A stretch of 64,000 nt of DNA from Bryobacteraceae bacterium. GTDB taxonomy: Bacteria > Acidobacteriota > Terriglobia > Bryobacterales > Bryobacteraceae. The notes below the pieces were generated by a model, which ran no database searches, was not told where the DNA came from, and was given only the letters and a program-made list of their open reading frames with translations. The position numbers and the translations under genes were made by a program. Location of the stretch: contig JAIEPW010000011.1 of NCBI GenBank assembly GCA_019748195.1, forward strand, positions 1 through 64,000, given 5' to 3'. This document shows, piece after piece, positions 60,607 to 63,537 of the stretch; the stretch's first letter is position 1; each line of letters begins with the position of its first letter.

Positions 60607-62040
60607 CTAGCGGGTCAGGGGGTCCTCGATCCAGGGCGGGGTGGCTTCCATCAGGCGGCCCAATTGGGGCTCGAGTTCTTCCATCCGCTGCTTCATCTCC
60701 CAGGCGATCTTGCGGTAGCTGAAATGGCCCTTCACGCCGCTGCGGAGCTTGGATATGTACTCGGCTTCGGCGAAGTCCATTTTGAAGAGGAAGCGCGATC
60801 GCGCGCCGAAGGGGAGCAGGTAATGCGATCCGGGTTCAGGAAGCTCGCGCATGGCGGCCAGCGCGCGCTCCATCGCGGTGGTGTATTCCGCGGTGGCTCC
60901 GGCCGCGCCGACCGCCTCCGGAGTTTCGAATCCGAGCCGTCCCGAATACGCCTGCCGGAATTGCTGGCAGCGGCGGTGGCGATGCAGGTCGCGATACGCG
61001 CCGATGTCCATCACGATGTCGTACACGTAAGGGGCCGAGCGAAATTCGCGAAGCAGGTCGTCGCGCCGGGAGCGGGAACGCAGCGCGATGTCCACTACCT
61101 CGTTGCGCCGCGCCGGACTCCAGGAACAGGCGAGTTCGTACAACTCGCGGAAGGGGCGGTCAGTGACGGGATACAGCAACGTGGCCACGATGTCGCAGAG
61201 CGTATCGGCGGGCTTCAGCAGGTCCACGTCGGGGAGGTTCGGATGGGAAGGAGCGGGCAGATTCTGCGCCGCCCACAAGCGGCGATCGGCGAGGCTTGCG
61301 CTGAGGTGATCGTCGGGGTTGCCGTACTTCGCGAGGGTGGGCGCGAGAGCTTCGCGGCCGGTTTCGGGATCCCAGACGCAGCCCGGAGGGGCGGCGCAGG
61401 CGGCGGCAGCTTCCGCGGCGATGTCGCGGATTTCGGCGTACTCGCTGGCCTTCAGCCGGCGGATCTGTTTTTCGAGCGTGCGAATGCTGGTGACCTGGCC
61501 GACGCCGGTGGGAACGCCGAAGAACAGGAGGTAGCGGGCGACATCGAAGGCGCGCGCCGCGAGGTTGCGTTCGTAGGCGTCCTGTTTCATTGCCTCGGGA
61601 CGGGGCAACTTTTCTTTCAGATGCTCGAAGACGCGGGCATGGATCGACTGGTAGGCCGCGATCAGAGCGTCTCCGGTGGCGCGGTACGCGGCAGCCTGGG
61701 TCGCGTCGAATTCCGGCGGGGTCACGAAGCCGGACTTCGAGAAGTCCTGATAGCGGGAGCTTCTGGCCTGCCCGTCCCACACCTGCTCGTCTTCAATTTC
61801 GGTGGCGGCAAGTTCGGAGACGCCCTCGAAGCAGAGGATCGCGTGCCCGAGGTCGGCGATGGAGGCATGTCCGTACTGGAAATAGAAGCTGTCGAGAAAT
61901 TTGGCCGAATCGTGGGTGCGGACCCAGTCGACGGAGGCATGGATGGAGTCGGGGGACCGCGAGTAGCGGGCCAGCGCGTATGCGGCTTTCTCCGGAGGCA
62001 TGGGAGAGACGGCGATTACGCGGGAAGTCGCATCGGGCAT
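60607..62040 (-). CDS. Two-domain ThyX-like (flavin-dependent thymidylate synthase family) protein
   Basis: 477 residues, about twice the length of ThyX. Both halves show the ThyX fold pattern. The first half has [42 protein letters not shown] and [29 protein letters not shown]. The second has [35 protein letters not shown] and [20 protein letters not shown]. The RHR-x7-S active-site motif is split: half 1 keeps the Ser (Ser94) but has DEQ for RHR, while half 2 keeps RHR (354-356) but has Ala at the Ser position. Enzymatic competence is therefore uncertain. It is divergent from dut with 36 bp between starts. Confidence 0.82.
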
Positions 62041-62076: not shown

Positions 62077-62508
62077 ATGAAAATCCGTATCAAACGTTTG
62101 TCGCCGGATGCGTTTCCGCCGCAGTATGCTCATGGGCCGGAGGAGGACGCCGGCATGGACTTGCGATCGATTGAAAGCGTCCTGTTGGTTCCCGGGGTCC
62201 CGTACGCGGTGCAGACCGGTTTGTCGCTGGAGCTGCCGCCGGGGTTCGAGGCGCAGATCCGGCCGCGGTCGGGGATGGCGCTGAAGCATGCGATCACGGT
62301 GCCGAACTCGCCCGGCACGATCGATCCGGCATACCGGGGCGAAGTGAAAGTGATTTTGCTGAACCTGGGCAAGTCGAATTATCAGATCGAGAAGGGCGAC
62401 CGCATCGCGCAGATGGTGATCGCGCGGTACGAACCGGTGGAATTGGTGGAGGGGGAGTTGTCGGAGTCGGAGCGGGGCGAGGGCGGATTCGGCTCCAGCG
62501 GACGCTAG
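62077..62508 (+). CDS. dut: dUTP diphosphatase (dUTPase)
   Basis: 143 residues from the ATG at 62077; the long ORF from 60664 is antisense to the ThyX-like gene. All five dUTPase motifs are present: [40 protein letters not shown] and the C-terminal [11 protein letters not shown]. The trimeric enzyme hydrolyses dUTP to dUMP and pyrophosphate, protecting DNA from uracil and supplying dUMP for dTMP synthesis. Its pairing with the divergent ThyX-like gene is consistent with that pathway. Confidence 0.95.
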
Positions 62509-62544: not shown

Positions 62545-63537
62545 ATGGAGCCCCTGGTCGACCAATTCGGCCGCCTGCACGACAATCTTCGGATCAGCGT
62601 AACGGACCGGTGTAACATCCGCTGCTTCTACTGCATGCCGGAGACCGGAGTGAAGTTCCAGCCTCGCGAGGAGATTCTGTCTTTCGAGGAGATCGAGCGG
62701 TTTGTGCGGGTGGCGGTGTCACTGGGCGTTCGCAAGATCCGGTTGACCGGCGGGGAGCCGCTGGTGCGCAAGGATCTGGCGGAGTTGATCGGGAGGCTGG
62801 CGGCGATTCCGGGGGTAGAGGACATCGCGCTGACGACCAACGGCGTGTTGCTGCAGGAGCAGGCGGCGGCGTTGTACGCGGCGGGGTTGCGACGGCTGAA
62901 TGTTCACCTGGACACGCTGAGCCGGGAGAAGTTCCTGAAGATCACGCGGCGGGATGAGTTCGATCGCGTGCTGGAAGGGATCCGCACGGCCAGGGAGATG
63001 GGCTTCGGGCCGATCAAGATTAATGTAGTGGCGGTGAAGGGGCTGATCGACGAGGATGTGGTTCCGATGGCGCGTTTCGGGCGCGAGAACGGTTTTGAGA
63101 TCCGCTACATCGAGTTCATGCCGTTGGATTCGCAGAACCTGTGGGACCGGAGCCGGGTGCTGCTGGCGGACGATATGGTGCGGATGCTGAGCGAGGAGAT
63201 CGCGCCGCTGGAGGAGATTCCGGACGGGGATCCGCGGGCTCCGGCGACGGAGTACCGATTCACGGACGGCATCGGGCGGGTGGGGTTCATCGCGAGTGTA
63301 AGCCGGCCCTTCTGCCTGAACTGCAACCGGATCCGGCTGACGTCGGACGGCAAGCTGCGGTACTGCCTGTTCGCGATCGAGGAGACGGACGTGAAGGGTC
63401 TGCTGCGCGGCGGCGCGCCGGATGAGCAGATCGCCCGGACAATCCGCGATAATGTTCGGGCAAAGTGGTTGGGGCACGAGATCAATTCGCAGCGCTTCGT
63501 GGCTCCTCCGCGACCCATGTATGCAATCGGTGGATAA
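62545..63537 (+). CDS. moaA: GTP 3',8-cyclase MoaA (molybdenum cofactor biosynthesis)
   Basis: 330 residues. The radical-SAM cluster motif CNIRCFYC near residue 23, TGGEPLVRKDL, and the C-terminal 4Fe-4S ligands in PFCLNCNRIRLTSDGKLRYCL are intact. The chain ends in Gly-Gly, required for MoaA activity. With MoaC it converts GTP to cyclic pyranopterin monophosphate. No other moa/moe gene is in the window. It follows dut after 36 bp and overlaps the next gene by about 17 bp. Confidence 0.96.
   Translation: MEPLVDQFGRLHDNLRISVTDRCNIRCFYCMPETGVKFQPREEILSFEEIERFVRVAVSLGVRKIRLTGGEPLVRKDLAELIGRLAAIPGVEDIALTTNGVLLQEQAAALYAAGLRRLNVHLDTLSREKFLKITRRDEFDRVLEGIRTAREMGFGPIKINVVAVKGLIDEDVVPMARFGRENGFEIRYIEFMPLDSQNLWDRSRVLLADDMVRMLSEEIAPLEEIPDGDPRAPATEYRFTDGIGRVGFIASVSRPFCLNCNRIRLTSDGKLRYCLFAIEETDVKGLLRGGAPDEQIARTIRDNVRAKWLGHEINSQRFVAPPRPMYAIGG

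What the first reader, a model, noticed from the sequence alone, without database searches (positions are those of the whole stretch)
60607..62040. Fused double ThyX with its catalytic motif divided between the two halves
Each half looks like a ThyX domain. In ThyX the motif RHR-x7-S combines substrate-binding Arg residues and an active-site Ser. Half 1 has the Ser at the right distance but DEQ replaces RHR; half 2 has RHR but Ala replaces the Ser. ThyX active sites form between subunits, so complementary half-sites in one chain might rebuild a composite site. Alternatively the protein has lost synthase activity.
Basis: partly seen in the sequence, partly recalled or inferred. Interest (0 to 1): 0.6.

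Follow-up and report, generated by a model that had tools for sequence, protein, structure and literature searches.

The report
Fused ThyX with divided active site
This bacterium's only recognisable DNA-thymine-making enzyme (ThyX) is two copies of the enzyme joined end to end, each of which has kept only the part of the catalytic site the other has lost; the same arrangement is conserved in enzymes of many bacterial phyla and some phages, so it is an old working design and not a decayed gene.

Summary
The 477-aa ORF holds two ThyX (PF02511) domains: half 1 has S94-S-R96-Y97 but DEQ instead of RHR, and half 2 has RHR but Ala for the Ser. The pattern is general. In 88 Acidobacteriota doubles, half 1 always keeps the residues that two ThyX subunits give to a site (Ser105, Arg107, Tyr108, Ser/Thr71 in M. 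tuberculosis numbering; also Arg172), and half 2 always keeps those of the third subunit (Arg95-His96-Arg97, Arg199). None is reversed among 171 doubles examined, which include records from more than a dozen other phyla and two phages. In published ThyX tetramers each site draws on three subunits. Of the three ways to place the halves in such a tetramer, only one fits: two chains make two complete sites, each from one half 2 plus both half 1s, and two dead sites. The genome has no other ThyX, no ThyA and no DHFR_1-type DHFR, and divergent dut lies 36 bp away. In 396 phylum genomes, none of 206 with two ThyX matches has a strong ThyA. The best reading is an active thymidylate synthase with a composite site, working as a dimer. 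Activity and quaternary structure are inferred. I found no paper describing the division, but only open-licence papers were searched.

The parts
60607..62040 (-). double ThyX gene (477 aa)
   Evidence: ORF; PF02511 twice; AlphaFold2 model pLDDT 92.3, pTM 0.91; Foldseek best PDB matches are M. tuberculosis ThyX (3gwc, 2af6)
61396..62001 (-). half 1, ThyX-like domain that keeps the B- and C-subunit roles (S60, S94, R96, Y97, R169, R187)
   Evidence: PF02511 match 53.1 bits; residues 49/49 in the window's clade; Ser/Arg/Tyr/Arg 88/88 in phylum doubles
61750..61761 (-). half 1 SxRY motif, residues S94-S95-R96-Y97 (dUMP-binding Ser and Arg, lid Tyr)
   Evidence: roles from PMC6514825
61783..61791 (-). 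half 1 position of the lost RHR, residues D84-E85-Q86
60667..61047 (-). half 2, ThyX-like domain that keeps the A-subunit role (R354-H355-R356, R433)
   Evidence: PF02511 match 43.9 bits; residues 49/49 and 88/88
60973..60981 (-). half 2 RHR motif, residues 354-356 (FAD and dUMP contacts)
60949..60951 (-). half 2 position of the lost Ser, A364
   Evidence: unconstrained in relatives
62077..62508 (+). dut (dUTPase, 143 aa), divergent, 36 bp from the ThyX start codon; makes dUMP, the ThyX substrate
   Evidence: PF00692 103.1 bits; divergent dut beside the double ThyX in 27 related loci as well as the window's own

Best explanation
The gene encodes a working flavin-dependent thymidylate synthase in which an ancestral ThyX was duplicated and fused, and the two copies then divided the catalytic work. 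Inferred: two chains pair into a pseudo-tetramer. In each chain half 2 takes the 'A' role of the ThyX site (RHR holds FAD and touches dUMP; R433, the Arg199 equivalent, touches dUMP), and half 1 takes the 'B' role (S60 and R187 on the FAD phosphates) and the 'C' role (S94 and R96 bind dUMP, Y97 is the lid). Only the arrangement with half 2 at diagonal positions gives two complete sites and two dead ones, and this is the one the residue losses fit. Each live site therefore joins one half 2 to the half 1 of both chains. Shown here: the division of residues, its conservation, and the absence of any other recognisable thymidylate synthase in the genome. Inferred: catalysis, dimer assembly and 2 FAD per dimer.
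For: (1) In 88 doubles from the phylum, half 1 has Ser105, Arg107, Tyr108 and Arg172 88/88 and Ser/Thr71 88/88, but no intact RHR. Half 2 has Arg95, His96, Arg97 and Arg199 88/88, but Ser105 7/88 and Arg107, Tyr108, Arg172 0/88. (2) Eight of the 13 invariant columns of a 76-sequence alignment are these residues: S94, R96, Y97, R169, R354, H355, R356, R433. (3) Published subunit roles match the division (PMC6514825). In the window's clade the B-role residues S60 and R187 are 49/49 in half 1; in half 2 Ser is 1/49 and Arg 0/49 (Ala 49/49). (4) The same orientation holds in 80/80 loci of the genome scan, many outside Acidobacteriota, and in two phages and Thermomicrobium roseum. (5) The halves group by position, not by protein, on the tree, so the division is old. 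(6) Own genome, 99.67% complete: no other ThyX, no ThyA, no DHFR_1-type DHFR, Tmk present. (7) 0 of 206 phylum genomes with two ThyX matches have a strong ThyA, against 97 of the other 190, p=3e-39, uncorrected for relatedness. (8) Divergent dut is conserved. (9) A confident single-chain fold most like ThyX.
Against: No experiment. The protein scores far below NCBI's ThyX equivalog cut-off (26 against 87.9 bits). The genome has a thymidine kinase, so salvage of thymidine is possible. The B-role Arg190 equivalent is clean only in the window's clade, and Arg87 is kept in neither half there. Single S88 mutants of the T. maritima enzyme are known to retain activity (own knowledge), so the Ser alone proves little.
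Confidence: 0.82

Rival explanations
1. The protein has lost thymidylate synthase activity and serves another role, for example as a nucleotide- or FAD-binding regulator, while dTMP comes from salvage or an unrecognised enzyme.
For: Neither half alone has a full motif; thymidine kinase is present; low score against the ThyX equivalog model.
Against: The residues that remain are exactly one full active-site set and are invariant. No ThyA or second ThyX is found in this genome, and doubles and ThyA exclude each other in the phylum. dut is beside the gene. The Tunturi_5 phage copy lies beside a dCMP deaminase gene, as expected for dTMP synthesis.
Confidence: 0.08
2. The enzyme is active but methylates a different nucleotide, such as UMP or dCMP, as PolB-type ThyX relatives do in antibiotic pathways.
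For: Variant ThyX enzymes acting on UMP exist (PolB, PMC5003785, listed); sequence divergence is large (about 20-25% identity between double subfamilies).
Against: Only dTMP-synthase candidate in the genome; neighbour is dUTPase, which makes dUMP; dUMP-binding residues are kept between the halves; no biosynthetic cluster in the few genes read around it.
Confidence: 0.05
3. The active site is composite, but the assembly differs, for example a monomer with one site inside one chain, or a higher oligomer.
For: The single-chain model is compact and confident (pTM 0.91), so half 1 and half 2 of one chain do pack together in the prediction.
Against: The published site draws on three subunits, and B- and C-role residues are both kept only in half 1; one half 1 cannot occupy both positions of one site.
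Confidence: 0.15

Closest known systems
ThyX / flavin-dependent thymidylate synthase (PF02511, TIGR02170; M. tuberculosis 3gwc, T. maritima TM0449)
   Same: Same fold by sequence profile and by Foldseek; nearly the full set of FAD- and dUMP-contacting residues is present when the two halves are counted together.
   Different: Known structures are homotetramers whose four identical chains each carry RHR and SxRY. Here two unlike halves in one chain each carry part of the set, which predicts two live and two dead sites.
phrog_36506 'thymidylate synthase' (e.g. Microcystis phage LMM01 gp020) and Tunturiibacter phage Tunturi_5 gp50
   Same: Double-length ThyX with the same division of motifs.
   Different: Phage-encoded and only 27% (LMM01) or 38% (Tunturi_5) identical to the window protein; annotated simply as thymidylate synthase.
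'FAD-dependent thymidylate synthase' of Thermomicrobium roseum (WP_012643046.1) and the SHPFYNSEQVSQRY subfamily in many phyla
   Same: Double ThyX, half 1 SxRY, half 2 RHR.
   Different: A separate subfamily with a Cys-rich C-terminus, far from the window protein.

Membership tests
ThyX (flavin-dependent thymidylate synthase) | PF02511 (Thy1) domain over the curated cut-off | tested here: met
   97.1 bits, two stretches, cut-off 24.8
ThyX (flavin-dependent thymidylate synthase) | NCBI equivalog model TIGR02170 over its cut-off | tested here: not met
   26 bits against 87.9
ThyX (flavin-dependent thymidylate synthase) | RHR-x7-SxRY signature within one domain | tested here: not met
   Half 1 lacks RHR, half 2 lacks SxRY; both parts are present only across the halves
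ThyX (flavin-dependent thymidylate synthase) | Complete set of site residues from subunits A, B and C | tested here: met
   A set in half 2 (R354, H355, R356, R433); B set (S60, R187) and C set (S94, R96, Y97) in half 1 (roles from PMC6514825). Arg87 is not kept in this clade.
ThyX (flavin-dependent thymidylate synthase) | Sole thymidylate synthase of the genome, ThyA and DHFR absent | tested here: met
   phylum-wide exclusion of ThyA
ThyX (flavin-dependent thymidylate synthase) | ThyX fold | tested here: met
   AlphaFold2 pLDDT 92.3; top Foldseek PDB matches are ThyX chains, E 1.7e-5, TM-score normalised to target 0.65
ThyX (flavin-dependent thymidylate synthase) | Homotetramer with four FAD sites | not testable with these tools
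   Predicted instead: dimer of two-domain chains with two FAD sites
ThyX (flavin-dependent thymidylate synthase) | FAD-, NADPH- and CH2H4folate-dependent dTMP formation | not testable with these tools
   Needs an assay or complementation
ThyA (classical thymidylate synthase) | PF00303 domain | tested here: not met
   The only family reported for the protein in the Pfam scan is PF02511; none in the genome

The most novel reading that the evidence does not exclude
A large, old class of thymidylate synthases, spread over more than a dozen bacterial phyla and some phages, has turned the symmetric four-site ThyX tetramer into an asymmetric fused enzyme. Complementary loss follows the three subunit roles of the site, so each chain pair builds two fully formed sites from one half 2 and two half 1s while two sites are dead and free to take another role, such as an allosteric nucleotide site.
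Probability: 0.7. Interest if true: 0.7.

Novelty: new variant of a known kind. Interest (0 to 1): 0.63.

Why it matters
Thymidylate synthesis is essential, and ThyX is an antibiotic target described as a homotetramer with identical sites. A fused form that has split its site along subunit roles is a clean natural case of complementary degeneration after duplication. It would show which residue acts from which subunit without mutagenesis, explain why this protein misses the standard ThyX model, and offer a built-in asymmetric enzyme in which half-sites can be changed one at a time. It also shows that a missing signature motif in one domain need not mean a missing enzyme, which matters when calling thymidine auxotrophy from uncultured genomes.

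Tried and rejected
Chance or misassembly: rejected; the full-length frame is found in most of the 61 relatives searched, with invariant motifs. A canonical ThyX or ThyA elsewhere in the genome: none found. Reversed or intact doubles: none among 171 examined; the other two-match cases looked at were a permuted single ThyX and a single ThyX interrupted by an intein-like insert. Distance between the motifs in the model could not be measured, as coordinates are not exposed. Literature searches found no paper on a tandem or divided ThyX; the library holds only open-licence papers. Arg190 as a phylum-wide B-role marker: not clean outside the window's clade, so used only there.

Full report
What is there. 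The minus-strand ORF 60607-62040 encodes 477 aa. Pfam finds the ThyX domain PF02511 twice (97.1 bits in total). Searched separately, half 1 scores 53.1 bits and half 2 43.9 bits.

The genome around it. The genome (5.83 Mb, 99.67% complete) has no other ThyX match, no ThyA, no DHFR_1-type dihydrofolate reductase, a thymidylate kinase and a thymidine kinase. Lack of a recognisable DHFR is common in ThyX-using bacteria (PMC1971073). A dUTPase gene starts 36 bp away on the other strand (62077-62508, PF00692); the divergent pair is conserved in 27 loci of relatives as well as the window's own. dUTPase makes dUMP, the ThyX substrate.

Which organism. The phylum is therefore most likely Acidobacteriota.

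Conservation. A full-length orthologue is found in most genomes of the family and order (52 of 61 genomes searched have a match, one of them a distant class-level hit). In 49 such sequences S94, R96, Y97, R169, S60 and R187 in half 1, and R354, H355, R356 and R433 in half 2, are all 49/49. The position of the lost Ser in half 2 is unconstrained, the half-2 equivalent of R169 varies (H31 Q9 E6 D2 V1), and the half-2 equivalent of R187 is Ala 49/49.

The wider family. A PF02511 scan of 396 phylum genomes found ThyX in 278; 206 have two or more matches. I read doubles from about 50 families. In 88 of them mapped to M. tuberculosis ThyX numbering, half 1 keeps Ser105, Arg107, Tyr108 and Arg172 88/88 and Ser/Thr71 88/88, and none of the half-1 motifs read has a complete RHR; half 2 keeps Arg95, His96, Arg97 and Arg199 88/88, with Ser105 in 7 and Arg107, Tyr108, Arg172 in none. 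Of 13 invariant columns in a 76-sequence alignment, eight are these residues. Four further doubles could not be paired by the script and were left out.

Outside the phylum. All 80 kept have RHR in half 2 and SxRY with a replaced RHR in half 1; they come from records labelled Nitrospirota, Planctomycetota, Verrucomicrobia, Bacteroidetes, Ignavibacteria, Kryptonia, Marinimicrobia, Omnitrophota, Sumerlaeota, Myxococcales, Chloroflexi, Armatimonadetes, Gemmatimonadales and others. Thermomicrobium roseum, Microcystis phage LMM01 and Tunturiibacter phage Tunturi_5 have it too. That makes 88 + 80 + 3 = 171 sequences without a reversal.

How it should work. In M. tuberculosis ThyX, site 1 takes RHR 95-97 and Arg199 from subunit A, Ser71 and Arg190 from B, and Ser105, Arg107 and lid Tyr108 from C (PMC6514825). 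By the symmetry of the tetramer the four sites are (A;B;C), (B;A;D), (C;D;A) and (D;C;B). If the half 2s sit at A and D and the half 1s at B and C, sites 1 and 4 have everything and sites 2 and 3 have nothing, so every residue is needed in only one half. If the half 2s sat at A and B, Ser71 would have to be kept in half 2; if at A and C, RHR and SxRY would have to be kept together. Neither is seen. The pattern thus selects one arrangement, in which each live site uses one half 2 and the half 1 of both chains. This step is inference from sequence plus a published description. The model of one chain is confident (pLDDT 92.3, pTM 0.91) and most like ThyX chains, but the complex was not modelled.

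Is it active? None of 206 two-match genomes has a strong ThyA; 97 of the other 190 do (Fisher p = 3e-39, lists). The 206 include a few that are not true doubles (permuted or intein-containing singles), and related genomes are not independent, so the p value is only indicative. Strict conservation, genome context and exclusion of ThyA all point to an active thymidylate synthase.

History. On a tree of halves, half 2s form one side of a branch (SH-aLRT 89) and no protein has its two halves as neighbours; half 1s need two groups. The fusion and division of labour are old. Whether the two main subfamilies share one fusion is open.

Known or new. Databases call such proteins (FAD-dependent) thymidylate synthase, so the double form as such is not new. 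I found no paper that describes the division or its fit to the three subunit roles, but subscription papers were not searchable. I rate it a new variant of a known kind.

Noticed in passing
L121, L122, L154 (genomes G382, G393, G347; also G171): A single ThyX of about 290 aa with circularly permuted order: the catalytic block (THRxFSRNxSSSRAIP) comes first and the GHxSPFEH block lies at the C-terminus.
   Followed up: partly
L106 (G146:C1:4376400-4379400): A single ThyX gene interrupted by an in-frame insert of about 380 aa right after KHRIA, beginning CLTGDA; looks like an intein at the catalytic motif.
   Followed up: no
A2 subfamily, e.g. L110:1055-2611:+ C-terminus: The SHPFYN subfamily of double ThyX ends in a conserved Cys-rich stretch (PPC..R...P.C.EG..FCG..VW) absent from the window protein; possible metal site.
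   Followed up: no
window 62545-63537: MoaA-like radical SAM protein (PF04055 + PF06463) just downstream of dut.
   Followed up: partly
phylum scan, e.g. G124, G206, G259, G349: Weak partial ThyA-like matches (E about 1e-7 to 1e-10, profile positions about 80-220) in open frames of roughly 280-510 aa that coexist with double ThyX; identity unknown.
   Followed up: no
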